Assembly (NCBI GenBank): GCA_964019135.1
Contig: OZ025253.1
Span: 32,600,548-32,664,547, forward strand
Direction of reading: 5' to 3'
DNA length: 64,000 nucleotides
DNA from: Arenicola marina
Taxonomy: Eukaryota > Annelida > Polychaeta > Arenicolidae
The notes beneath the pieces were generated by a model. It saw nothing but the letters and a program-made list of their open reading frames with translations. It made no database searches and was not told the origin of the DNA. This document shows positions 3,500-64,000 of the stretch, piece after piece. How positions within the stretch are numbered: the first letter of the stretch is position 1; each line of letters opens with the position of its first letter. The position numbers and the translations under genes were made by a program.

Positions 3500-3670
3500 C
3501 ATGATCCTGATGGTGAAAGGGGATTTCACATTTCTGAACACATGCTTCTTTTAGGCGCGAGGCTGCCCTGATGGAAAAATGTGTGCCCACCCCCCCCCCT
3601 TTATCTTCTTTTCGACAGATGAATTATCCCATTGAGCAAATGGGATAACCCATCAACACACACATACACA
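3500..3670. repeat. Copy B of the duplicated block
   Basis: It matches 2231-2400, including the poly(C) run and the TTCGACAGATGAATTATCCC hairpin arm. Its left end was separated by the LINE insertion (2948-3499). Copy B leads into the confirmed exon at 4047, just as copy A leads into the candidate exon at 2727. Confidence 0.85.
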
Positions 3671-4046
3671 CCCTCCATACTCAAAGTATAAACATGTAAA
3701 CAGAAACACCGGGCTAGGCCGATGTCAATGATTTAGACCTAAGTTTCTATGCCCTTGTAAACTGTGAATGTTACCATTGGTATCATAGGAAATTGTGTAT
3801 CGTAATTACATGTGTTAACTAGCGGCGGCCGAGACGGGAGCATTATGTGCCTGAATACATGTGCCCCACACCCCAGCCGCTCAACAGGTTGTTTACCTAA
3901 CATGCTAAGTCCTACTGTTTCAGTAAACAATTGGTCTGGTGGGTTAATATTCCACACCCTGATATTCGGAAAATACCGGATAGCGAACATTAATCAGAAA
4001 TAGAGAATTTGTTCAACCTTCTAATCTCGCGATATTTTAATTTCAG

Positions 4047-4328
4047 GGCAGCCCGGTTCGTCCAGTCCGCCAAGCAATGAGCTTCCAGTACGATAATCAG
4101 AGTCTACCGATCAAGGTCAAGGCGACGACATTCAAGAACCTAAACCTCCCTCCCAAGACGTTCCGCAAGTTGACCCCGGACAACGTCAAAGAATTTGCCA
4201 TCGTAACCGGCTGTGACACAATTCACTTCCGAGAGAGCATGGACGCCGTGGCCAGCATCCAGCGCCATTTTCCCAACCGCACTGTGTATTACTACGACCT
4301 GGGACTTACAGATGCACAACGACGGCAG
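4047..4328 (+). CDS. Internal exon, DUF1647-like (glycosyltransferase-like) protein, N-terminal half of domain
   Basis: The acceptor is TTAATTTCAG (AG 4045-4046). The exon is 282 nt, exactly 94 codons, and ends in CAG before GTAGGC (GT 4329-4330), so both borders are phase 0. The peptide contains FAIVTGCDTIHFRESMDAVA, then SIQRHFPNRTVYYYDLGLT and DAQRRQ. This order (VTa...HF.Es...I...P.....YDLGL...Q) is what I know of DUF1647-type proteins, which are thought to be Golgi type II membrane proteins; their reaction is not known to me. An ATG at 4077 is in frame, but ten open codons precede it, so it is probably internal. The last ~53 bp of the exon are the parent of the 75-bp minisatellite that follows. 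Missing the 4329 donor would read into a TAG at 4386-4388. No membrane anchor is visible in the window. Confidence 0.72.
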
Positions 4329-7300
4329 GTAGGCGTCAGTCAAACACCAAACCGCACAGTGTGTTACTACGACCTGGGTCTAACATAGGCACATCGACGG
4401 CAGGTAGGCGTCAGGCAAACACCAAACCGCACAGTGTATTACTACGACCTGGGTCTAACATAGACACAACGACGGCAGGTAGGCGTCAGGGTAACACCAA
4501 ACCGCACAGTGTATTACTACGACCTGGGTCTAACACAGACACAACGACGGCAGGTAGGCGTCAGGCAGACACCAAACCGCACAGTGTATTACTACGACCT
4601 GGGTCTAACATAGACACAACGACGGCAGGTAGGCGTCAGGCAGACACCAAACCGCACAGTGTATTACTACGACCTGGGTCTAAAATAGACACAACGACGG
4701 CAGGTAGGCGTCAGGCAAACACCAAACCGCACAGTGTATTACTACGACCTGGGTCTAACATAGACACAACGACGGCAGGTAGGCGTCAGTCAAACACCAA
4801 ACCGCACAGTGTATTACTACGACCTGGGTCTAACATAGACACAACGACGGCAGGTAGGCGTCAGGGTAACACCAAACCGCACAGTGTATTACTACGACCT
4901 GGGTCTAACATAGACACAACGACGGCAGGTAGGCGTCAGGCAAACACCAAACCGCACAGTGTATTACTACGACCTGGGTCTAACATAGACACAACGACGG
5001 CAGGTAGGCGTCAGGCAAACACCAAACCGCACAGTGTATTACTACGACCTGGGTCTAACATAGACACAACGACGGCAGGCAGGCGTCAGGCAAACACCAA
5101 ACCGCACAGTGTATTACTACGACCTGGGTCTAACATAGACACAACGACGGCAGGTAGGCGTCAGGCAAACACCAAACCGCACAGTGTTTTACTACGACCT
5201 GGGTCTAACATAGACACAACGACGGCAGGTAGGCGTCAGGCAAACACCAAACCGCACAGTGTATTACTACGACCTAGGTCTAACACAAACACAACGACGG
5301 CAGGTAGGCGTCAGGCAAACACCAAACCGCACAGTGTATTACTACGACCTGGGTCTAACACAAACACAACGACGGCAGGCAGGCGTCAGGCAAACGTCAA
5401 GCCGCACAGTGTATTACTACGACCTGGGTCTAACACAAACACAACGACGGCAGGTAGGCGTCAGGCAAACACCAAACCGCACAGTGTATTACTACGACCT
5501 GGGTCTAACACAAACACAACGACGGCAGGCAGGCGTCAGGCAAACGTCAAGCCGCACAGTGTATTACTACGACCTGGGTCTAACACAAACACAACGACGG
5601 CAGGCAGGCGTCAGGCAAACATCAAGCCGCACAGTGTATTACTACGACCTGGGTCTAACATAGACACAGCGACGGCAGGTAGGCGTCAGGCAAACACCAA
5701 ACCGCACAGTGTATTACTACGACCTGGGTCTAACACAAACACAACGACGGCAGTCAGGCGTCAGGCAAACACCAAACCGCACAGTGTATTACTACGACCT
5801 GGGTCTAACACAAACACAACGACGGCAGGCAGGCGTCAGGCAAACACCAAACCGCACAGTGTATTACTACGACCTGGGTCTAACATAGACACAACGACGG
5901 CAGGTAGGCGTCAGGCAAACACCAAACCGCACAGTGTATTACTACGACCTGGGTCTAACATAGACACAACGACGGCAGGCAGGCGTCAGGCAAACACCAA
6001 ACCGCACAGTGTATTACTACGACCTGGGTCTAACACAAACACAACGACGGCAGGCAGGCGTCAGGCAAACACCAAACCGCACAGTGTATTACTACGACCT
6101 GGTTCTGACACAGCCATAACGACGGCAGGTAGGCGTCAGGCAAACGTCAAGCCGCACAGTGTATTACTACGACCTAGGTCTAACATACACACAACGACGG
6201 CAGGTAGGCGTCAGGCAAACGTCAAGCCGCACAGTGTATTACTACGACCTGGGTCTAACACAAACACAACGACGGCAGGCAGGCGTCAGGCAAACACCAA
6301 ACCGCACAGTGTGTTACTACGACCTGGGTCTGACACAGCCACAACGACGGCAGGTAGGCGTCAGGCAAACGGCAAGCCGCACAGTGTATTACTACGACCT
6401 GGGTCTAACACAGACACAGCGACGGCAGGCAGGCGTCAGGCAAACACCAAACCGCACAGTGTGTTACTACGACCTGGGTCTAACACAGACACAGCGACGG
6501 CAGGTAGGCGTCAGGCAAACACCAAACCGCACAGTGTATTACTACGACCTGGGTCTAACACAGACACAACGACGGCAGGTAGGCGTCAGGCAAACACCAA
6601 ACCGCACAGTGTGTTACTACGACCTGGGTCTAACACAGACACAGCGACGACAGGCAGACGTCAGGCAAACACCAAACGGCACAGTGTATTACTACGACCT
6701 GGGTCTAACACAGACACAACGACGGCAGGTAGGCGTCAGGCAAACACCAAACCGCACAGTGTATTACTACGACCTGGGTCTAACATAGACACAACGACGG
6801 CAGGTAGGCGTCAGGCAAACACCAAACCGCACAGTGTATTACTACGACCTGGGTCTAACACAGACACAACGACGGCAGGTAGGCGTCAGGCAAACACCAA
6901 ACCGCACAGTGTATTACTACGACCTAGGTCTAACACAGACACAACGACGGCAGGTAGGCGTCAGGCAAACACCAAACCGCACAGTGTATTACTACGACCT
7001 GGGTCTAACATAGACACAACGACGGCAGGTAGGCGTCAGGCAAACACCAAACCGCACAGTGTATTACTACGACCTGGGTCTGACACAAACACAACGACGG
7101 CAGGTAGGCGTCAGGCAAACACCAAACCGCACAGTGTGTTACTACGACCTGGGTCTAACACAGACACAACGACGGCAGGTAGGCGTCAGGCAAACACCAA
7201 ACCGCACAGTGTATTACTACGACCTGGGTCTAACATAGACACAACGACGGCAGGTAGGCGTCAGGCAAACACCAAACCGCACAGTGTATTACTACGACCT

Positions 7301-10300
7301 GGGTCTGACACAGCCACAACGACGGCAGGCAGGCGTCAGGCAAACGTCAAACCGCACAGTGTATTACTACGACCTGGGTCTAACACAAACACAACGACGG
7401 CAGGTAGGCGTCAGGCAAACACCAAACCGCACTGTGTATTACTACGACCTGGGTCTAACACAGACACAACGACGGCAGGTAGGCGTCAGGCAAACACCAA
7501 ACCGCACTGTGTATTACTACGACCTGGGTCTAACACAAACACAACGACGGCAGGTAGGCGTCAGGCAAACACCAAACCGCACAGTGTATTACTACGACCT
7601 GGGTCTAACATAGACACAACGACGGCAGGTAGGCGTCAGGCAAACACCAAACCGCACAGTGTATTACTACGACCTGGGTCTGACACAGCCACAACGACGG
7701 CAGGCAGGCGTCAGGCAAACGTCAAACCGCACAGTGTATTACTACGACCTGGGTCTAACATAGACACAACGACGGCAGGCAGGCGTCAGGCAAACACCAA
7801 ACCGCACAGTGTATTACTACGACCTGGGTCTAACACAAACACAACGACGGCAGGTAGGCGTCAGGCAAACGTCAAGCCGCACAGTGTATTACTACGACCT
7901 AGGTCTAACATAGACACAACGACGGCAGGTAGGCGTCAGGCAAACACCAAACCGCACTGTGTATTACTACGACCTGGGTCTAACATAGACACAACGACGG
8001 CAGGTAGGCGTCAGGCAAACACCAAACCGCACAGTGTATTACTACGACCTGGGTCTAACATAGACACAGCGACGGCAGGTAGGCGTCAGGCAAACACCAA
8101 ACCGCACAGTGTATTACTACGACCTGGGTCTAACATAGACATAACGACGGCAGGTAGGCGTCAGGCAAACACCAAACCGCACAGTGTATTACTACGACCT
8201 GGGTCTGACACAGACACAACGACGGCAGGTAGGCGTCAGGCAAACGTCAAGCCGCACAGTGTATTACTACGACCTAGGTCTAACATAGACACAACGACGG
8301 CAGGTAGGCGTCAGGCAAACACCAAACCGCACAGTGTATTACTACGACCTGGGTCTGACACAGCCACAACGACGGCAGGCAGGCGTCAGGCAAACGTCAA
8401 ACCGCACAGTGTATTACTACGACCTGGATCTAACATAGACACAACGACGGCAGGTAGGCGTCAGGCAAACACCAAACCGCACAGTGTATTACTACGACCT
8501 GGGTCTAACATAGACACAACGACGGCAGGCAGGCGTTAGGCAAACGTCAAACCGCACAGTGTATTACTACGACCTGGGTCTAACATAGACACAACGACGG
8601 CAGGTAGGCGTCAGGCAAACACCAAACCGCACAGTGTATTACTACGACCTGGGTCTAACATAGACACAACGACGGCAGGCAGGCGTCAGGCAAACGTCAA
8701 ACCGCACAGTGTATTACTACGACCTGGATCTAACATAGACACAACGACGGCAGGTAGGCGTCAGGCAAACACCAAACCGCACAGTGTATTACTACGACCT
8801 GGGTCTAACATAGACACAACGACGGCAGGCAGGCGTTAGGCAAACGTCAAACCGCACAGTGTATTACTACGACCTGGATCTAACATAGACACAACGACGG
8901 CAGGTAGGCGTCAGGCAAACACCAAACCGCACAGTGTATTACTACGACCTGGGTCTAACATAGACACAACGACGGCAGGCAGGCGTTAGGCAAACGTCAA
9001 ACCGCACAGTGTATTACTACGACCTGGATCTAACATAGACACAACGACGGCAGGTAGGCGTCAGGCAAACACCAAACCGCACAGTGTATTACTACGACCT
9101 GGGTCTAACATAGACACAACGACGGCAGGCAGGCGTCAGGCAAACGTCAAACCGCACAGTGTATTACTACGACCTGGGTCTAACATAGACACAACGACGG
9201 CAGGCAGGCGTCAGGCAAACGTCAAACCGCACAGTGTATTACTACGACCTGGGTCTAACATAGACACAACGACGGCAGGCAGGCGTCAGGCAAACGTCAA
9301 GCCGCACAGTGTATTACTACGACCTGGGTCTAACACAAACACAACGACGGCAGGTAGGCGTCAGGCAAACACCAAACCGCACAGTGTATTACTACGACCT
9401 GGGTCTAACATAGACACAACGACGGCAGGTAGGCGTCAGGCAAACATCAAACCGCACAGTGTATTACTACGACCTGGGTCTAACATAGACACAACGACGG
9501 CAGGTAGGCGTCAGGCAAACACCAAACCGCACAGTGTATTACTACGACCTGGGTCTAACATAGACACAACGACGGCAGGCAGGCGTCAGGCAAACATCAA
9601 ACCGCACATTGTACTACTACGACCTGGGTCTAACATAGACACAACGACGGCAGGCAGGCGTCAGGCAAACATCAAACCGCACAGTGTATTACTACGACCT
9701 GGGTCTAACATAGACACAACGACGGCAGGCAGGCGTCAGGCAAACACCAAACCGCACAGTGTATTACTACGACCTGGGTCTAACATAGACACAACGACGG
9801 CAGGCAGGCGTCAGGCAAACATCAAACCGCACAGTGTATTACTACGACCTGGGTCTAACATAGACACAACGACGGCAGGCAGGCGTCAGGCAAACGTCAA
9901 GCCGCACAGTGTATTACTACGACCTGGGTCTAACACAAACACAACGACGGCAGGTAGGCGTCAGGCAAACATCAAACCGCACAGTGTATTACTACGACCT
10001 GGGTCTAACACAGCCACAACGACGGCAGGCAGGCGTCAGGCAAACGTCAAACCGCACAGTGTATTACTACGACCTGGGTCTAACATAGACACAACGACGG
10101 CAGGCAGGCGTCAGGCAAACGTCAAACCGCACAGTGTATTACTACGACCTGGGTCTAACATAGACACAACGACGGCAGGTAGGCGTCAGGGTAACACCAA
10201 ACCGCACAGTGTATTACTACGACCTGGGTCTAACATAGACACAACGACGGCAGGTAGGCGTCAGGCAAACACCAAACCGCACAGTGTATTACTACGACCT

Positions 10301-10538
10301 GGGTCTAACATAGACACAACGACGGCAGGCAGGCGTCAGGCAAACACCAAACCGCACAGTGTATTACTACGACCTGGGTCTAACACAAACACAACGACGG
10401 CAGGCAGGCGTCAGGCAAACGTCAAGCCGCACATTGTATTACTACGACCTGGGTCTAACATAGACACAACGACGGCAGGCAGGCGTCAGGCAAACACCAA
10501 ACCGCACAGTGTATTACTACGACCTGGGTCTAACACAA
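4276..10538 (+). repeat. 75-bp minisatellite copied from an exon/5' splice-site junction, about 84 units
   Basis: Units start at 4276 and every 75 bp up to 10501, where the last is partial. I see no net length change over 83 periods. The first unit is the end of the coding exon plus the start of the intron. Each later unit keeps a TATTACTACGACCTGGGTCT-type exon segment, then CGACGGCAG and a donor-like GTAGGC or GCAGGC. By eye, 51 units (including the real donor) have GT, 31 have GC and one (near 5754) has TC. The first ten are all GT, and GC predominates after about 9129. Because 75 is divisible by 3, the parental reading frame is kept, but most units have ACATAG (in-frame TAG). Others have ACACAG, ACACAA or GCC variants and stay open, the longest run being 6159-6788. 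From about 8400 to 9150 units alternate as 150-bp dimers. Confidence 0.97.
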
Positions 10539-11297
10539 AGGTTACAACAGTTACATATAGGTAGTCGCAATTGTATCATCATAACGTACTCAAGATGACC
10601 TATGCAGGTGTAACATATCATACATATGATATATATGACAATATATATTGTAATAATACGAATATGTTCATATATAATGTCTTTCTTCTATTTTTTTTTT
10701 ATTTCTATGAGATATTATCTTCATATCATTCAATGTAGCAATATAATGTAATAGCCCATATATAGTATTTTATATTTTCGGGAGGTTCAGTCTTGGTGCA
10801 ACGTACAATTGAGGAGCTGGCAAGCTAAAAAGTACCCACCGCATGCAGCAACACTGCATACATACGCGTTCAAACCAATGGTTATTAGGGTGAGTATTTG
10901 TGATATCATTCTGCCAGCTGGAGTCTCCTCAATCTGATTTGCTTCCACTGTGCCAAAGCAACTTGGTCCCAACGGCTCTTTGTCGTTTAGTGTCTGCGAC
11001 AGATGTGTCCGCCGATTGCATGATGGGACTCATATGTTTCTCGTTTATATTACATATACCTTAATGGGTTTAATATTTAAGTGAAATTGGTTAGAATGAA
11101 TAATGATCTACCTGTCTTGAGATTATAAAACCACACCACAACAAGTTATTTATTATTCTATTCTTATCTTCGGCGATGTTCCTTTTTTAGAGATAGTTTT
11201 CATGCAGAAACTCTCCACATTCTTATGATTAAATTGTTCTAAACATTTCATTCATTTACGGTTTTTGCGTTTATTAAAAATGTAATTTTTTTCCCAG
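10539..11297 (+). other. Unique remainder of the locus 1 intron
   Basis: This is AT-rich DNA with TATATGATATATATGAC-like stretches and an imperfect inverted pair (ATTGAGGAG near 10808, CTCCTCAAT near 10924). It ends in the acceptor TTTTTTTCCCAG at 11297. No coding sequence was seen. Confidence 0.6.
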
Positions 11298-11831
11298 GAA
11301 GTATTACAGGAACATGGAGCAGCTCTCTGGATCGACGCCTCAATACGGATCAGGAGTGACGACTGGAGCCAGGTGTACGCCAGAGTGCAAGAGACAGGAG
11401 GCATGTTCGGTATGGTCAACTTTGGAATTCCAAATTTCGCCACAACCCATCCAGATGTGTATAACTACTTCCCGCTCAACGTTAACCTCACCAGAGGAAT
11501 ACGCGCAGCGGGAACTGGGGCCTTATTGATTTACAACACGGAAGAGATATACTGGGGCATCCTCCACTGGTGGTACCTCTGCGCTCTCGACCCGAAATGC
11601 ATCGCGCCCACCAGACAACTACGCTGCAACGAGTCGTTCCACGCATCCCGCAGCGGGCCCGCGCACGCGGTGACTTGGGCCAAGTGTCACCGCTTTGACC
11701 AATCTATCGTGAACGTTCTTCTCATGATGCATTTCGGAAGCGGATACAGCTATTTAGCAACCACGAAAGAGCTGACCCCCATTGACGTAATTCGCAAGGT
11801 CAGTTTCATATACAAAATCCACGTTTGTTAG
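11298..11831 (+). CDS. Exon, DUF1647-like protein, C-terminal half of domain
   Basis: The acceptor TTTTTTTCCCAG lies just before 11298, and the frame is open in phase 0, matching the donor of the 4047-4328 exon. The peptide opens EVLQEHGAALWIDASIRI, then has GGMFGMVNFGIPNFATTHPD, a GALLIYNTEEIYW block, LHWWYLCALDPKCIAP, LRCNESFH and AKCHRFDQSIVNVLL. Trp-Ile-Asp-Ala-Ser, the paired Cys in LCALDPKC and the CHRFDQS block fit the same DUF1647-like family as the upstream exon. The exon may end at 11798, where AAG meets GTCAGT (another phase-0 donor), or run to TAG at 11829-11831, adding VSFIYKIHVC. The domain is almost complete at that point, so either is possible. High GC at third positions contrasts with the AT-rich intron and supports real coding. 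Confidence 0.78.
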   Translation, partial: EVLQEHGAALWIDASIRIRSDDWSQVYARVQETGGMFGMVNFGIPNFATTHPDVYNYFPLNVNLTRGIRAAGTGALLIYNTEEIYWGILHWWYLCALDPKCIAPTRQLRCNESFHASRSGPAHAVTWAKCHRFDQSIVNVLLMMHFGSGYSYLATTKELTPIDVIRKVSFIYKIHVC

Positions 11832-12081: not shown

Positions 12082-12285
12082 ATAATCCAGATCTAAAGGG
12101 TCAAATCCAGATGGGTGGGGGGTCAATCTGTATGATCTGGGTCAATCTGGAGGGGTGAAATCCGGATCTGAGGGGTCAAATCTGGACATTATGGGTCAAA
12201 TCTGGACATGAATGGTCAAATCTGGACCTGAGGGGTCAAATTGGGATCTGAGGGGTCAAATTGTGATCTGAGGGGTCAGTACGGT
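12082..12285. repeat. Degenerate ~21-bp tandem repeat (GAGGGGTCAAATCTGGA)
   Basis: About nine imperfect copies of GGGTCAAATCTGGAC/ATCTGA. A related degenerate set (GAGAGGTCAATCTGGATGC-like) occurs at 13146-13265. Confidence 0.75.
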
Positions 12286-13978: not shown

Positions 13979-15200
13979 ATTTTATTTTGTTCCGTTGGGT
14001 AAAAAGAGATTACCTTTATGTTCATTTCTCCATTTTCCTCTGAAGGCTCGTGTCTGTATGTGTTTCTTGTAAAAAAACTATACCTTTATGATTATCTTGA
14101 TATGTTTGTGTACACACACTTTTCCTTGTGATTGCATTTCTTAGTCCTATCGTCCTAGTTTTATCGTATCCATTTCTAACTATTTTGCTCCTTGATAAAG
14201 AGTGATCATAATGGGACGTCTCGTTTGCTGAAGGGTTTTGTGAATGAGTGAGTTTCTTGGGAGTACTCATTTCGATACAGTGCGGGTGAGGGGAAAAACA
14301 GCGTTCAAACCCAATGCTTCAAACCGTCACGCGTGAACCAATACTATATAACCTCCCATTAGGTTTGGCTCTGCGAAATAGTGCGTGGTAAAGTAACTAA
14401 AATTAAATTGAATTGTGCTCATATGAGATGGGATTCGTCCTGCCGGGAGACATCACACACATGTGAAGGACTATAAACTAGCTGTAACTGGGCGTACATG
14501 TAGGGTTGACGTAGGCCCTAGACAGTGCGGCAACATACTCAATTAATGTTTAAATGGAATGTATATTGATACACGGGCTTAAATGGGAGCGTAAAGGATA
14601 TCTCTGTCCGAACGTTGCATGACTCCACCATCCACTCCGCCAGATATTATCGATATAACATACAACCACCAAGTACTCCGAAGAGGAAGGATTACAAGAT
14701 GTTCAGAGGGAAAAACGAAACGGGAGGCTCCGGTGGATCTGTTCTTATTGCACACAACCCGATAGGCCATTGTAGATTGGCTAAGTTCAGTGTATGGGGT
14801 ATATGCGGCACAAGTATAGGTAAACAAATAGTTGATTAAACTTGTATATCGAGCTCTTTCCCGCCCAAACTAAGGAAGTCAAATTAAATACAAATAATAA
14901 TCAGTCCTTGAATCATCCAAGAATTGTTTGGTCTTAGATCTTCCACGCATGCCAGACTCCTAAATGGAGTCTCTAAGCCTTGCTCGTAATATCAATTTAC
15001 CACGTGTTTCAACTAAGTGGTAAACGTCATCAGTTTGTGTGCTTCGCGATGCTTTGTTATAAGTAGCAGGGCCGCGACAGAGTTCTGTCCTGCATGTTGT
15101 GATATATATGTTTCCTAGGCTTAGTTAACTGTGGCTGGAAAGAGCTCCATATGCAACTTTAACATAATATTACATAACCGAAGGCAAAGTACACTCAACC
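13979..15200. other. No recognised feature
   Basis: Open frames of 60-82 codons occur on both strands with no family similarity I recognise. No tandem repeat was seen. Confidence 0.4.
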
Positions 15201-15203
15201 AAA

Positions 15204-15450
15204 GGGGCCCGGCGCGATAGCTCTGTGGGGTAGAGCGCTCGCATTGAATGCTCTGATCACCTGAGAGCCTAACGGCACGTGGACCGATGGTTCGAGCCCT
15301 GCTGTGGCCATGTCCGTGTGGTCGCAGGATAAAGATCTCATTTTTTCGTAAAGAGTAGGGGGTTACCCCCGGGGACATGGCTCCACTCTCCCTTCCTTCT
15401 CCCAATGACCAAAAGTGGTTAAAGCGTCCTAAATAACCAACCACTTAACC
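15204..15450 (+). mobile_element. tRNA-derived SINE, copy 1
   Basis: The head GATAGCTCTGTGGGGTAGAG is a box A-like sequence and GGTTCGAGCCC (near 15290) is a box B. These are spaced as in a tRNA with a long variable arm (Leu/Ser-like). The body contains GGCCATGTCCGTGTGGTCGC, GTAGGGGGTTACCCCCGGGG and ACCAAAAGTGGTTAAAGCGT. Four other copies in the window share all of these blocks. Confidence 0.9.
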
Positions 15451-40142: not shown

Positions 40143-40349
40143 GGTGGGGGAGGGGGGGGGGGCGCTCTACCTTGACACTCCCAGTCCTCTACCTTGACAC
40201 TCCATGTACTATACCTTGACACTCCCTGTCCTCTACCTTGACACTCCACGTCCTCTACATTGACACTCCACTCCACGTCCTCTACCTTAACACTTCACGC
40301 CCTCTACCTTAACACTTCACGCCCTCTACCTTGACACTCCATGCCCTCT

Positions 40350-40549
40350 NNNNNNNNNNNNNNNNNNNNNNNNNNNNNNNNNNNNNNNNNNNNNNNNNNN
40401 NNNNNNNNNNNNNNNNNNNNNNNNNNNNNNNNNNNNNNNNNNNNNNNNNNNNNNNNNNNNNNNNNNNNNNNNNNNNNNNNNNNNNNNNNNNNNNNNNNNN
40501 NNNNNNNNNNNNNNNNNNNNNNNNNNNNNNNNNNNNNNNNNNNNNNNNN
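40350..40549. other. Assembly gap (200 N)
   Basis: Exactly 200 N by position, probably a default-size scaffold gap. It lies within the 22-bp array and between the two copies of the 100-bp unique sequence. Confidence 0.99.
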
Positions 40550-40839
40550 ACCTTGACACTCCATGTAGTATACCTTGACACTCCCTGTCCTCTACCTTGA
40601 CACTCCATCCACGTCCTCTAACTTGACACTCCGTGTCCTCTATCTTTACACTTCACGCCCTCTACCTTAACACTCCATGCCCTCTACCTTAACACTCCAT
40701 GCCCTCTACCTTGACACTCCCTGTCCTCTACCTTGACACTCCATGTACTATACCTTGACACTCCCTGTCCTCTACCTTGACACTCCACGTCCTCTACCTT
40801 GACACTCCATCCACGTCCTCTAACTTGACACTCCGTGCT

Positions 40840-40941
40840 CCGAGCTTAGTACACGAATGTGGAAAACCCCTTTAACTATATACGTTGGGGATTCTGGCGA
40901 TCGACTCGCCATGTGGCATGTAACGCATGGGTGTGTCCACG
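40840..40941. repeat. ~100-bp unique sequence, copy 2, inside the array
   Basis: This is a near-identical repeat of 40041-40142, 799 bp downstream. Both are followed by a poly(C) or poly(G) run and then 22-bp units. It may be a real duplication or an unmerged second haplotype at the gap. Confidence 0.95.
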
Positions 40942-43379
40942 CCCCCCCCCCTCCCCATTTTCAGACACTATGCCATCTGTCTTGACACTTTATATCATCT
41001 ACTCTACCGTGACACTCCATGCCCTCTACCTTCACACTTTATGTCCTCTACCCTCCCAATCCGAGTCCTCTATCTTTACACTTCACGTCATCTACAGTGA
41101 CACTCCGAGTCCTCTACCTTGACACTCTACGCCCTCTACATTGACACTTCACTCCACGTCCTCTACCTTGACACTTCACGCCCTCTACCTTAACACTTCA
41201 CGCCCTCTACCTTGACACTCCATGCCCTCTACCTTGACACTCCATGCCCTCTACCTTGATACGTTATGTCCTCTATTCTACCTTGACTCTCCATGTCCTC
41301 TATCGCGACAGTCCACGCCCCCTACCTTGACACTGCACGCCCTATACCCTGACACCCCACGTCTTCTACCTTGACACTTCATGTCCTCTACCTTGACACT
41401 CCGCGGCCTCTACATTGACACTCCACTCCACGTCCTCTACCTTGACACTTCACGCCCTCTACCTTAACACTTCACGCCCTCTACCTTGACACTCCATGCC
41501 CTCTACCTTGACACTCCATGCCCTCTACCTTGACAGTCCCTGTCCTCTACCTTGACACTCCATGTACTATACCTTGACACTCCCTGTCCTCTACCTTGAC
41601 ACTCCACCTCCTCTACCTTGACACTCCATCCATGTCCTCTAACTTGACACTCCGTGTTCTCTATCTTTACACTCTACGCCCTCTACATTGACACTCCACT
41701 CCACGTCCTCTACCTTGATACTTCACGCCCTCTACCTTAACACTCCATGCCCTCTACCTGGACAATCCCTGTCCTCTACCTTGACACTCCATGTACTATA
41801 CCTTGACACTCCCTGTCCTCTACCTTGACACTCCACGTTCTCTACCTTGACACTCCATCCACGTCCTCTAATTTGACATTCCGTGTCCTCTATCTTTACA
41901 CTCTACGCCCTCTACATTGACACTCCACTCCACGTCCTCTACCTTGACACTTCACGCCCTCTACCTTAACACTCCATGCCCTCTACCTTAACACTCCATG
42001 CCTTCTAGCTTGACACTTCACGCCCTCTACCTTGACATTCCATGCCCTCTACCTTGATACCTTATGTCCTCTATTCTACCTTGACTCTCCATGTCCTCTA
42101 TCGCGACAGTCCACGCCCCCTACCTTGACACTGCACGCCCTATACCCTGACACCCCACGTCTTCTACCTTGACACTTCATGTCCTCTACCTTGACACTCC
42201 GCGGCCTCTACATTGACACTCCACTCCACGTCCTCTACCTTGACACTGCACGCCCTATACCCTGACACCCCACGTCTTCTACCTTGACACTTCATGTCCT
42301 CTACCTTGACACTCCGCGGCCTCTACATTGACACTCCACTCCATGCCCTCTACCTTGACACTCCATGCCCTCTACCTTGACAGTCCCTGTCCTCTACCTT
42401 GACACTCCATGTACTATACCTTGACACTCCCTGTCCTCTACCTTGACACTCCACCTCCTCTACCTTGACACTCCATCCATGTCCTCTAACTTGACACTCC
42501 GTGTTCTCTATCTTTACACTCTACGCCCTCTACATTGACACTCCACTCCACGTCCTCTACCTTGATACTTCACGCCCTCTACCTTAACACTCCATGCCCT
42601 CTACCTGGACAATCCCTGTCCTCTACCTTGACACTCCATGTACTATACCTTGACACTCCCTGTCCTCTACCTTGACACTCCACGTTCTCTACCTTGACAC
42701 TCCATCCACGTCCTCTAATTTGACATTCCGTGTCCTCTATCTTTACACTCTACGCCCTCTACATTGACACTCCACTCCACGTCCTCTACCTTGACACTTC
42801 ACGCCCTCTACCTTAACACTCCATGCCCTCTACCTTAACACTCCATGCCTTCTAGCTTGACACTTCACGCCCTCTACCTTGACATTCCATGCCCTCTACC
42901 TTGATACCTTATGTCCTCTATTCTACCTTGACTCTCCATGTCCTCTACCTCGACAGTCCACGTCCCCTACCTTGACACTGCACGCCCTATACCCTGACAC
43001 CCCACGTCTTCTACCTTGACACTTCATGTCCTCTACCTTGACACTCCGCGGCCTCTACCTTGACACTTCATGTTCTCTACCTTGACACTCCACGTCCTCT
43101 ACCTTGACACTTCACGCCCTCTAACCTAACACTCCATGCCCTCTACCTTAACACTCCATGCCCTCTACCTTGACACTCTCTGTCCTCTACCTTGACACTC
43201 CATGTACTATACCTTGACACTCCCTGTCCTCTACTTGACACTCCACCTCCTCTACCTTGACACTCCATCCACGTCCTCTAACTTGACACCCCGTGTCCTC
43301 TTTCTTTACACTCCACGTCCTCTACCTTGACACTCCACGTCCTCTACCTTGACACGTCAAGGTGTGTAAGCTGGCATTG

Positions 43380-44921
43380 TCGTGGAGTGGCCTGCACACC
43401 TCGTCCTCGATGTATTTTCCACGCCTGTAACATCTACCGAAGCATTGACCGTTCCCTGCTTCGTTTTACCACAGGGAGTGCAGACATGTTCTTTAATTGT
43501 TAAGGACTTGGACCACCACCCCTCTTACTCTGTGCGACCCTTTCCGCTGACGCTCAATGTCACTGTGGAAACATTAATGTGTCGCCCGTATCACCAATAT
43601 TCATTTAGCAGTTGACTTGGTTGATATCGGTTGGAGTTTGGCTTTTTTCTGCTGTATTCGGTGGTGATAGCCATAGAGACTGGTGTCTATGTCCAGTCAC
43701 CAAGTCTGAGTGCATTGTTCTTCTCAGTGTTTTATATCATCCGTCACCCTTATCACTTAGAAGCCCTCCTATTACTGACAGTTACACCCACCAATCTGCC
43801 CCGCCCACCCCCTAACCCACTCCCTCCCTCCCTAATTCACCCTAATGCTAAAATGTATCTCACTTATTCGCCATTCGGGTATCCTCCCCACTCTTCTACC
43901 CATCTCCCCAGAATAATGTACGCACATAGTCGCACCCCCCCCCCACCCCCCACATAGTCGCACCCCCCCCCCACCCTCCACCCCCCACATAGTCGCACCC
44001 CCCCCCCCACCCCCCCTCACCCCACACCCAACTCCCATCGAAGTTGCTTGATCACCCCGCCTGACTCCACCCACCCCCTCTTCCCTTCACCCTCCTCCCC
44101 CTTTCACCACCCCCTCCCTTCCCCCCTCCCCCCCCCCTACACCGCCTGTTATCCCAGGATCCTTTAAACGTGGCATTAACCCGTGGAGGCACTGGGAGCC
44201 GGGAGGGGTTGCCACCGGGGGCCGGGCAGAGCCGTAATGACGGGGGAACGCTTTGAAGGTGGGGCGACGATACTGGGGATGCCGAGATGTGAGCGGGCCG
44301 TAAAGGGCGGGATGTCGCTGTGATGCGGGCTTATCTAGCCTCGCCAAGCCTCCCTCGAGGCCCCCATCGGCCTTCGCTCTGCGTGGACGCCGCCCGCGAT
44401 TCCACAACTCTTCTCATGTCACTGCGCAAAACACCCACCCACCCACACACATAAACATACGGACACCATTCCCTATTATCGCCCCCCCCCATACCCTCCT
44501 CGCCTCTATTATCGCCCCCACGTGGTCTTCCATATCAATTTCGTTCGTACCCGACGCCACGTGACTATCGGGTGTCCCTCCGTCCGTCCGTTCCGCTTCG
44601 GTAGCTGCTGACAGGAGCAAGGCGTCACGTGTCACATGTCTGCGTACGGAGTCCCGGCATCACGTGACGTTATCTATTAACTTCCGGGTGCTGCAAAGTG
44701 ATCCGCGTCTGAAATCAGATGCCATGCGTCACTTCTCATTGGCCCGAACTGGTGAATCAATAAAACGCTGACTGTTATTGCGTTACGCGCGTCTCTCCAA
44801 TGTGTCGTTTTCAATATAATTCAATCAATCAGAGAGCGAAGAGTGCATATTCATATTTGAGACCCAGCATAGGTGCTAAAGGTCTTGATGACCCAAGTTT
44901 GAGTACACAGTTCCGGGTCAA
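43380..44921. other. No gene recognised; C-rich block and a GC-rich unique patch
   Basis: At 43800-44140 the plus strand is C-rich with a repeated CATAGTCGCACCCCCC motif (three copies near 43925-44000). At 44160-44410 a GC-rich, CpG-containing patch is non-repetitive and open on the minus strand, but I do not recognise the product. It could be an exon or a promoter-type island. Confidence 0.35.
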
Positions 44922-45178
44922 CCAGGGGGCCGGCGCTATAGCTCAGTGGGTTAGAGCGCTCGCATTGAGTGCTCTGGCCACCTGAGAGCCTAACTAACGG
45001 CCCGCGGTGGTTCGAGCCCTGCTGTGGCCATGTCTGTGTGGTCGCAGGATAAAGATCCCATGTCCTTCTTCGCAAAGAGTAGGGGGTTACCCCCGGGGAC
45101 ATGGCTCCACCCTCCCTACCTTCTCGCATTGACGTGATATGACCAAAAGTGGTTAAAGCGTCCTGAATATACAACCAA
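44922..45178 (+). mobile_element. tRNA-derived SINE, copy 3
   Basis: Best-preserved head: TATAGCTCAGTGGGTTAGAG (box A) and GGTTCGAGCCC (box B). The GTAGGGGGTTACCCCCGGGG and AAAAGTGGTTAAAGCGTCCT body blocks are present. Confidence 0.92.
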
Positions 45179-45539
45179 ACGTGTCAACGGACAAAATATA
45201 TAACCACTCTGCATTTATTTTGCGATAATGCGTGACAGCTGACGTAAGTTGGAAGTATGTGAACTACGTCACAGCTTTGTGTGTAGTTCACTGGTTTATT
45301 GCGCCATTTTAGGGATGCTGGACAGTCTCCAGGCAATACATTTTGGTGATAACTAAGTGATAGTAATACATCATTCTATATTGCACTAATCAGGCCATAA
45401 CATGTAACAATGTTAGATTCTAACAAGCTGTTGGCGAGAAATAACTGGCTTTCAAGCTAATATTACAGTAAATGTTTACAGACACTCAAATAAGCCAGCA
45501 ATCGACGATAGCATCCATCTATTAATCCGTTGATGTGAA

Positions 45540-55243: not shown

Positions 55244-55341
55244 CCGGCACCACAAGCTCACCCCGCCAGCCCGGCCTGTCATACATTAATGGCCCAGCAC
55301 TACAGCGCCACAGTTGCCAATATGGTCCTGGGATCTCTGAG

Positions 55342-55596
55342 GGGCCGCGCGACAGCTCAGTGGGCTAGAGCGCTCGCCTTGAGTGCTCTGGTCACCTGAG
55401 AGCCTAACGGCACGTGGGTCGGTGGTTCGAGCCCCGCTGTGGCCATGTCTGTGTGGTCGCAGGATGAAGATCCCATGTCTTTCTTTCGTAAAGAGTAGGG
55501 GGTTACCCCCGGGGACATGGCTCCACTCTCCCTTCCTTCTCCCATTGACGCGATATGACCAAAAGTGGTTAAAGCGTCCTGAATAACTAACCAACC
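55342..55596 (+). mobile_element. tRNA-derived SINE, copy 4
   Basis: GACAGCTCAGTGGGCTAGAG (box A) and GGTTCGAGCCC (box B near 55424) are followed by the full body to ACCAAAAGTGGTTAAAGCGT and CCTGAATAACTAACCAACC. It is very similar to copy 1. Confidence 0.92.
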
Positions 55597-55834
55597 TGGG
55601 ATATTTGAACCGGAACGCAAGGCCAACCGCTACATATATACATATAGGCGTGTATATGTCATTGACATAACTCAGCCGGTCGATAACTTCAGCCTCAAGT
55701 GGTATCAGAGTTCATGCCATACACTCGAAAAATCGTCCGGGTGGTGCCATCAGTGTGGTTCACATTATATATATACGCAATACCCCATATACGGGACAGA
55801 GAATTAGTCCCAGTGTCAATGCTATGAGAAACAC

Positions 55835-62883: not shown

Positions 62884-64000
62884 GTGGTAGGGAGTGGCGG
62901 ATGGTGGGAAAGCTGGTATTGGGAGTGGTGGGAAGGCTGATGCTGATGAGGATGGAGGTGAAAGCGAGGGTGGGGGTTGGAGGGGGTGAGGATGGAGGTG
63001 AAAGTGAGGGTGGGGGCTGGAGGGGGTGAGGGTGCAGGCGTAAGTGAGGGTGAGGGTTGGAGGGGGTGAGGGTGGAGGTGAAAGTGAGGGTGGGGGTTGG
63101 AGGGGGTGAGGATGAAGATGAAAGTGAGGGTGGGGGTTGGAGGGGGTGAGGGTGCAGGCGTAAGTGAGGGTGAAGGTTGGAGGGGGTGAGGGTGGAGGCG
63201 AAAGTGAGGGTGTGGGTTGGAGGGGGTGAGGATGGAGGTGAAAGTGAGGGTGAGGGCTGGAGGGGGTGAGGATGGAGGTGAAAGTGAGGGTGGGGGTTGG
63301 AGGGGGTGCGGATGGAGGTGTAAGTGAAGGTGGGGGTTGTAGGGGTTGAGGATGGAGGTGAAAGTGAGAGTGGGGGTTGGAGGGGGTGAGGATGGAGGTG
63401 AAAGTGAGGGTGGGAGTTGGAGAGGGTGAGGGTGAGGGTTGGAGGGGGTGAGGATGGAGGCGTAAGCGAGAGTGGGGGTTGGAGGGGGTGAGGATGGAGG
63501 TGTAAGTGAAGGTGGGGGTTGGAGGGGGTGAGGATGGAGGTGAAAGTGAGGGTGGGGGTTGGAGGGGGTGAGGATGGAGGTGAAAGTGAGGGTGGGAGTT
63601 GGAGGGGGTGAGGGTGCAGGCGTAAGTGAGGGTGAAGGTTGGAGGGGGTGAGGGTGGAGGTGAAAGTGAGGGTGTGGGTTGGAGGGGGTGAGGATGGAGG
63701 TGAAAGTGAGGGTGAGGGCTGGAGGGGGTGAGGATGGAGGTGAAAGTGAGGGTGGGGGTTGGAGGGGGTGAGGATGGAGGTGTAAGTGAAGGTGGGGGTT
63801 GGAGGGGTTGAGGATGGAGGTGAAAGTGAGAGTGGGGGTTGGAGGGGGTGAGGATGGAGGTGAAAGTGAGGGTGGGAGTTGGAGGGGGTGAGGGTGAGGG
63901 TTGGAGGGGGTGAGGATGGAGGGGTAAGCGAGAGTGGGGGTTGGAGGGGGTGAGGATGGAGGTGTAAGTGAAGGTGGGGGTTGGAGGGGGTGAGGATGGA
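62884..64000. repeat. 40-bp G-rich minisatellite, truncated by the window end
   Basis: The unit is GATGGAGGTGAAAGTGAGGG followed by TGGGGGTTGGAGGGGGTGAG, about 27 copies here. Blocks of variant units recur about 462 bp apart (GGTGCAGGCGTAAGTGAGGG at 63151 and 63613), showing a higher-order repeat of about 11-12 units. The G-strand has several runs of three or more G per unit. Confidence 0.95.

What the first reader, a model, noticed from the sequence alone, without database searches (positions are those of the whole stretch)
4276..10538. A 6.3-kb minisatellite made of copies of an exon end plus its own 5' splice site
The first unit is real gene sequence: the last 53 bp of a coding exon (ending RRQ) and 22 bp of intron. 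About 83 further copies follow head-to-tail, so the intron begins with dozens of decoy donors, each preceded by the same exon sequence. The spliceosome must choose the first of ~50 GT donors in near-identical context. Using any later donor would add 25-codon modules in phase, but the first repeat has an in-frame TAG (4386-4388), so such transcripts would truncate. I recall intronic minisatellites at exon junctions being reported in amphioxus; I cannot verify the details or whether this locus is known.
Basis: partly seen in the sequence, partly recalled or inferred. Interest (0 to 1): 0.88.

Follow-up and report, generated by a model that had tools for sequence, protein, structure and literature searches.

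The report
Giant repeat copying a splice site
An intron of an animal gene of unknown function begins with about 83 copies of the exon's last 53 bases plus its own splice signal, a very large example of a repeat type already described in amphioxus, and it is probably spliced out whole because the first copy wins.

Summary
A 75-bp unit (last 53 bp of a coding exon + first 22 bp of its intron) is repeated 83.5 times in perfect register, 4276-10539. Besides the presumed genuine donor at 4329, 50 copies carry the identical donor CAG|GTAGGC; 31 have GC and 1 has TC. Products of later donors run into the in-frame TAG at 4386.

A 105-bp exon (10785-10889; or 99 bp from 10791) lies between the array and 11298. 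Without it the protein falls below the DUF1647 (PF07801) cut-off (17.2 vs 25.7 bits); with it, it scores 48.8. RNA joins should be sought at 10785/10791, not only 11298.

The kind of thing is known: "mirages", tandem repeats of exon/intron borders in amphioxus Adh3 and globin genes. The first-donor choice needs no special device: published minigenes with two identical strong donors used the upstream one exclusively under exon definition. I rate it a new, very large member of a known kind; its use is as a natural test of splice-site position with 51 identical donors.

The parts
4047..4328 (+). coding exon, 94 codons, phase 0 at both ends; its last 53 bp (4276-4328) are copy 1 of the array
   Evidence: acceptor ..tttaatttcag at 4046 and donor CAG|GTAGGC (sequence); tblastn of homologue P0001 4068-4331 E=3e-17
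4276..10539 (+). tandem array, 75-bp unit, 83 full copies and a 39-bp partial copy
   Evidence: TRF, register table, unit statistics
4329..4334 (+). presumed genuine 5' splice site GTAGGC (CAG|GTAGGC)
   Evidence: U1 duplex -10.7 kcal/mol, equal to 50 decoys; no GT/GC site of 4047-10790 outside the array reaches that value; exon end ..AQRRQ matches Capitella P0012
4386..4388 (+). in-frame TAG in copy 2, contained in the exon extension made by any later donor
   Evidence: products of donors 2, 3, 10 and 80 (4 of 4 built) all stop here
10254..10259 (+). last decoy GT donor (copy 80), 531 bp before the 10784 acceptor
   Evidence: 537 bp counted to 10790
   Evidence: tblastn E=2.7e-8 with a segment of P0002 and 7e-7 with one of P0001; real 38.5 and 35.4 bits against best of 500 mononucleotide shuffles 21.9 and 20.4; DUF1647 score rises from 17.2 to 48.8 bits
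11298..11831 (+). last coding exon, ends ..YKIHVC and stop
   Evidence: tblastn P0002 E=7e-38, P0001 E=3.5e-27

Best explanation
It is a very large 'mirage': a minisatellite grown from a tandem duplication that spanned an exon/intron border of a DUF1647 (PF07801) gene. Everything from donor 1 (4329) to the next acceptor (10784, or 10790) is removed as one intron of about 6.46 kb. [quoted passage not shown] Any leak to a later donor meets the TAG at 4386 and should be destroyed by nonsense-mediated decay. Because splicing hides the copies from the protein, the array can grow and mutate freely inside while the exon copy stays under protein selection. Shown: anatomy, identity of the donors, the missed exon (by homology), the stop. 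Inferred: which donor is used, decay of leaks, neutrality, history.
For: Array and register. 51 identical donors, none favoured by U1 pairing (all -10.7), and donor 1 not by local accessibility (rank 36 of 51). Of the features I tested, position is what is left. Published minigenes with two identical strong donors under exon definition used the upstream one exclusively, and human donor pairs of near-equal strength between long introns favour the upstream one (PMC9225289, abstract and Results part 1 of 2 read). Stop met by the later-donor products built (4 of 4), 120 nt or more before the last junction. Copy 1 stands apart (mean 8.57 differences to copies 2-83, minimum 6; among these 3.81), and 3 of its 5 differing codons are synonymous. 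Copies 54-68 form 150-bp dimers (mean difference 1.69 at lag 2, 4.36 at lag 1). PMC3087553 describes interior homogenisation with excluded edges for a globin mirage and says that Adh3 data and its globin RT-PCR suggest regular splicing in spite of mirages (passages).
Against: No RNA evidence of any kind. The species is not established. The same splicing paper finds downstream donors favoured over all human events (about 60%) and in short-intron settings, and with weakened donors its larger exons were skipped; the last decoys here lie near the acceptor. The acceptor best supported by protein homology (gggag|GTT) has a weak G at -3; the two candidate acceptors, 6 nt apart, were not decided by RNA. 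The 5' part of the gene was not found. At the 3' edge of the array the last full copy is not more divergent than the rest. Neutrality was not formally tested: diversity by codon position in the exon-derived part is 0.045/0.028/0.048, only a weak pattern.
Confidence: 0.8

Rival explanations
1. The array is removed piecemeal: each unit is a possible 75-nt mini-intron (GT donor, CTAAC, CAG followed at once by the next GT), so the RNA could be shortened copy by copy and always regenerate the same donor; the final mRNA would be the same.
For: Every GT copy has CAG|GTAG back to back; CTAAC occurs 75 times in 4329-10538, in the consensus about 20 nt before the CAG. Tandem AGGT duplications make introns elsewhere (Rogers model, ATP2A1, fission yeast; passages of PMC4974935).
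Against: The would-be acceptor has no pyrimidine tract: 7 of 20 pyrimidines and 2 T, against 12-13 and 10-11 for the gene's own acceptors. An ATAG lies between CTAAC and CAG.
Confidence: 0.06
2. Later donors are used on purpose as a poison-exon switch: inclusion of one or more copies brings in the TAG and lowers expression.
For: 50 later donors pair with U1 as well as the first, the unit keeps phase and the TAG is in the first repeat.
Against: Donors decay: 32 of 82 copies have lost GT, and +2 is one of the two most variable sites of the unit. 33 of 82 copies lack an in-frame stop. Published identical-donor tests favour the first one.
Confidence: 0.07
3. The locus is a pseudogene or is not transcribed, so no choice is ever made.
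For: No RNA data; the 5' exons were not found.
Against: Three exons open in one frame, all phase 0, with splice sites, ending in a stop where P0002 ends.
Confidence: 0.06
4. The copy number is partly an assembly product.
For: A 200-N gap lies in another array of the window (40350-40549), so repeats troubled this assembly.
Against: 47 distinct unit types among 82 copies, with a dimer pattern, and no N in this array.
Confidence: 0.1

Closest known systems
Amphioxus 'mirages' (Adh3, globins BflGb6 and BflGb9; PMC3087553 passages; the Adh3 paper of Canestro et al. 2002 is not held)
   Same: Tandem repeats whose unit spans an exon/intron border, splice signals in many copies, interior homogenised.
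   Different: BflGb6 has units of 150-160 bp in 6 and 3 copies, BflGb9 a duplicate of 157 bp, and Adh3 units are 10-72 bp; here 75 bp in 83.5 copies with 51 identical GT donors. Adh3 copy numbers were not seen. Species not verified here.
Lancelet PGBD5 60- and 108-bp repeats over splice sites (PMC3902484, one passage)
   Different: Imperfect; 3 x 108 bp for one of them.
Intron gain by tandem duplication of an AGGT segment (Rogers model; potato RdRp, ATP2A1, fission yeast SPOG_01682; PMC4974935 passages)
   Same: Tandem copies each bring AG|GT, so copies become intronic.
   Different: Here the intron's donor is the exon end and its acceptor lies outside the array; whether any intron was gained was not tested.
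Variable internal tandem repeats at human exon/intron borders (PMC2812944 passages)
   Same: Minisatellites that change gene structure at exon borders.
   Different: On average 30-bp units repeated 4 times; for most of its intron modifications (66%) a transcript retaining the repeat is also supported.

Membership tests
mirage (exon/intron-border minisatellite) | head-to-tail tandem repeat | tested here: met
mirage (exon/intron-border minisatellite) | unit spans an exon/intron border | tested here: met
   copy 1 = 4276-4328 exon + 4329-4350 intron; exon supported by homology
mirage (exon/intron-border minisatellite) | splice signal in many copies | tested here: met
   51 of 83 full copies GT, 31 GC, 1 TC
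mirage (exon/intron-border minisatellite) | interior homogenised, edge copies excluded | tested here: inconclusive
   5' edge yes: copy 1 differs by 8.57 on average against 3.81 among copies 2-83; 3' edge no: the last full copy is like the rest and the one after it is cut off
mirage (exon/intron-border minisatellite) | regular mRNA splicing in spite of the copies | not testable with these tools
   no RNA
mirage (exon/intron-border minisatellite) | length polymorphism between alleles | not testable with these tools
   one sequence only
mirage (exon/intron-border minisatellite) | found in amphioxus | not tested
   own genome not searchable: got no answer
PF07801 / DUF1647 gene | Pfam gathering score 25.7 | tested here: met
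   48.8 bits with the 10785-10889 exon, 17.2 without

The most novel reading that the evidence does not exclude
The array is not merely tolerated: its repeated CAG|GTAG borders act in the RNA, either as back-to-back recursive splice points that let the intron be removed in 75-nt steps without trace, or as a row of about 50 identical U1 snRNP sites that protect the long intron from premature cleavage. One locus would then hold a natural series of identical splice sites differing only in position.
Probability: 0.07. Interest if true: 0.75.

Novelty: new member of a known kind. Interest (0 to 1): 0.4.

Why it matters
With one presumed real and 50 decoy donors of identical 9-base sequence at multiples of 75 nt, and a stop codon that marks every misuse, this locus is a ready-made natural test of how far position alone decides the choice of a 5' splice site. 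It also shows how gene models go wrong near such arrays: a conserved exon 245 bp past the array was overlooked. As a phenomenon, minisatellites at exon/intron borders are already in print.

Tried and rejected
Rejected: the splice 4328-to-11298 (below family cut-off). Rejected: donor 4334 (GGC|GTCAGT), which would also restore the two missing residues: U1 pairing -1.8 against -10.7, DUF1647 47.1 against 48.8 bits. The two bit scores are close, so the case for acceptor 10784 over donor 4334 rests mainly on that donor's weakness. Rejected: RNA structure hiding the decoys: donor 1 is not more accessible (rank 36 of 51). Rejected as coding: the 1440-aa open frame 4217-8539 is the same repeat read in another frame and is broken by stops further on (the next pieces are 99 and 524 codons). 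Another mirage in the window: of the 15 other arrays counted, ten consensuses were scanned on both strands for U1 pairing; only the 40-bp array at 62947-64000 comes near (-9.8, GGGGTGAGG), in a G-rich repeat; exons beside these arrays were not searched for beyond the Pfam scan that follows. Pfam scan of ten other ORFs of the window: 0 of 10 gave a family. Rfam: 0 matches in the window at gathering scores. A homology search with the corrected protein alone gave none of 641 candidates, against 4 of 183 for the version without the exon; a profile of 5 sequences gave 40 of 2118. I cannot explain why one search missed P0001. An earlier count said 18 of 18 homologues span the junction; the right count is 17 of 17, since P0016 lacks that part. 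labels exon-side positions one too high and the dimer block 54-67 where it spans copies 54-68; the text here uses the corrected ones.

Full report
What is there. Between 4276 and 10539 a 75-bp unit is repeated head to tail, 83 full copies and one of 39 bp, with no insertion or deletion. Copy 1 is gene sequence: the last 53 bp of a coding exon (4047-4328) and the first 22 bp of the intron. Left of 4276 the likeness to the unit ends (8 of 30 bases). Copies 2-83 differ from each other by 3.81 of 75 bases on average and fall into 47 types; copy 1 differs from them by 8.57 on average and by at least 6. In copies 54-68 neighbours differ by 4.36 but next-but-one neighbours by 1.69, so 150-bp dimers have probably spread there recently. 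The last copy breaks off at base 39 of the unit, inside its exon-derived part, which suggests a later deletion at that edge.

The donors. Copy 1 and 50 of copies 2-83 carry exactly CAG|GTAGGC; 31 carry GC and 1 TC. With the 5' end of U1 snRNA (recalled) all 51 pair equally (-10.7 kcal/mol), GC copies less (-6.0), and no GT or GC site of 4047-10790 outside the array reaches -10.7. Local accessibility does not single out donor 1 (rank 36 of 51). GT is commoner in copies 2-42 (29 of 41) than in copies 43-83 (21 of 41); because copies spread as blocks I draw nothing from this.

The missed exon. Homologue P0001 (Lamellibrachia) has about 35 further residues between the two exons. They are in the window: 10785-10889 reads VQSWCNVQLRSWQAKKYPPHAATLHTYAFKPMVIR, E=7e-7 and 2.7e-8 with segments of two homologues; over 500 mononucleotide shuffles of 10540-11297 the best scores were 20.4 and 21.9 bits against 35.4 and 38.5. 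It is followed by AGG|GTGAGT. With it DUF1647 scores 41.9-48.8 bits, by junction version. Of 18 homologues aligned (of 42 found), 17 span the junction and all 17 have at least two residues more than RRQ|SWC (P0019 and P0022 three), the first of them V, I, L or M. Starting the exon at 10785 adds VQ (48.8 bits), close to IQ in Capitella P0012, which also has AQRRQ before it; using donor 4334 instead adds VG (47.1) but that donor pairs weakly with U1. I take 4328 | 10785 as likeliest; its acceptor gggag is poor at -3, and 10791 (after cag) remains possible. Both keep the frame.

So the array's intron is 4329-10784 (6456 bp) and the array ends 245 bp before its end. The last exon runs to the stop at 11829-11831, where P0002 also ends in VC. 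Members of the family bear names such as nucleotide-diphospho-sugar transferase and a glycosyltransferase (source names, cut off in the table); DUF1647 genes occur in clusters of putative glycosylation genes in Caenorhabditis (PMC7614267, one passage). I did not find the 5' exons.

How it works. The products of later donors that I built (donors 2, 3, 10, 80) all stop at 4386, 120 nt or more before the last junction, which by the usual 50-55-nt rule (recalled) predicts decay; any later donor includes this stop, since it lies before donor 2. Why the first donor should win has an experimental precedent: minigenes with two identical strong donors and 365-nt flanking introns used the upstream one exclusively, and human pairs of near-equal strength flanked by long introns favour the upstream one, while short introns favour the downstream one (PMC9225289, abstract and Results part 1 of 2). 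Here donor 1 makes a 282-nt exon, donor 2 a 357-nt one, donor 80 a 6207-nt one. The same source reports that over all human events the downstream donor is preferred in about 60%, and that with weakened donors its larger exons were skipped. No RNA could be examined, so donor use is a prediction.

Signs of free decay. 32 of 82 copies have lost GT and +2 is one of the two most variable sites (0.476; the other, 0.481, is the first base of the TAG/CAG/CAA codon); 49 of 82 copies have an in-frame stop. Between copy 1 and the consensus five of 17 codons differ, three of them synonymously, as expected if only the exon copy is held by selection. The number is small.

What is known. PMC3087553 (passages of abstract and section 16) describes 'mirages': tandem repeats of intron/exon borders in amphioxus globin genes, earlier in Adh3, with units from 10-72 bp (Adh3) to 150-160 bp (BflGb6), splice signals in many copies, apparently regular splicing and, at Adh3, somatic length instability. 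PMC3902484 (one passage) adds TnC and PGBD5. The Adh3 paper itself is not held. The present array meets three of the four features that could be tested; the fourth (edge copies excluded from homogenisation) holds at the 5' edge only. It has many more copies than the globin example (6 and 3); whether larger arrays are in print I cannot say (searches in the open library). The finding is therefore a new member of a known kind, perhaps in amphioxus, which I could not verify.

Chance. 16 tandem arrays cover 17,343 of 64,000 bases of this window (27%). In such a genome some arrays will cross exon borders without any special cause, and those are the ones that splicing conceals.

Noticed in passing
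window 1-64000: Tandem arrays are dense: 16 arrays, 17,343 bases, 27% of the window (from TRF).
   Followed up: partly
40350-40549: A gap of 200 N inside a 22-bp array (40165-43355), so copy numbers of that array are not known.
   Followed up: no
2236-2400 and 3500-3670: By eye, two nearly alike stretches (..aggctgccctgaaggaaaaatgtg..tttatcttcttttcgacagatgaattatccca..) about 1.27 kb apart, upstream of the exon at 4047.
   Followed up: no
15121-15444, 44851-45183 and 55286-55711, minus strand: Three ORFs with alike peptides (..VRLSGDQS..ERS.. and the like, by eye), probably copies of a dispersed repeat; the third gave no Pfam family, the other two were not scanned.
   Followed up: partly
2727-2765: A possible 39-bp upstream exon (ttgcag | .. 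| gtaggt), phase 0, read by eye; not supported by homology.
   Followed up: no
12145-12278: A 20-bp tandem array (6.7 copies) 314 bp after the gene's stop codon, perhaps in the 3' untranslated region.
   Followed up: no
10784 and 10790: Tandem acceptors 6 nt apart (gggag and ttcag) that would give proteins with or without VQ.
   Followed up: yes
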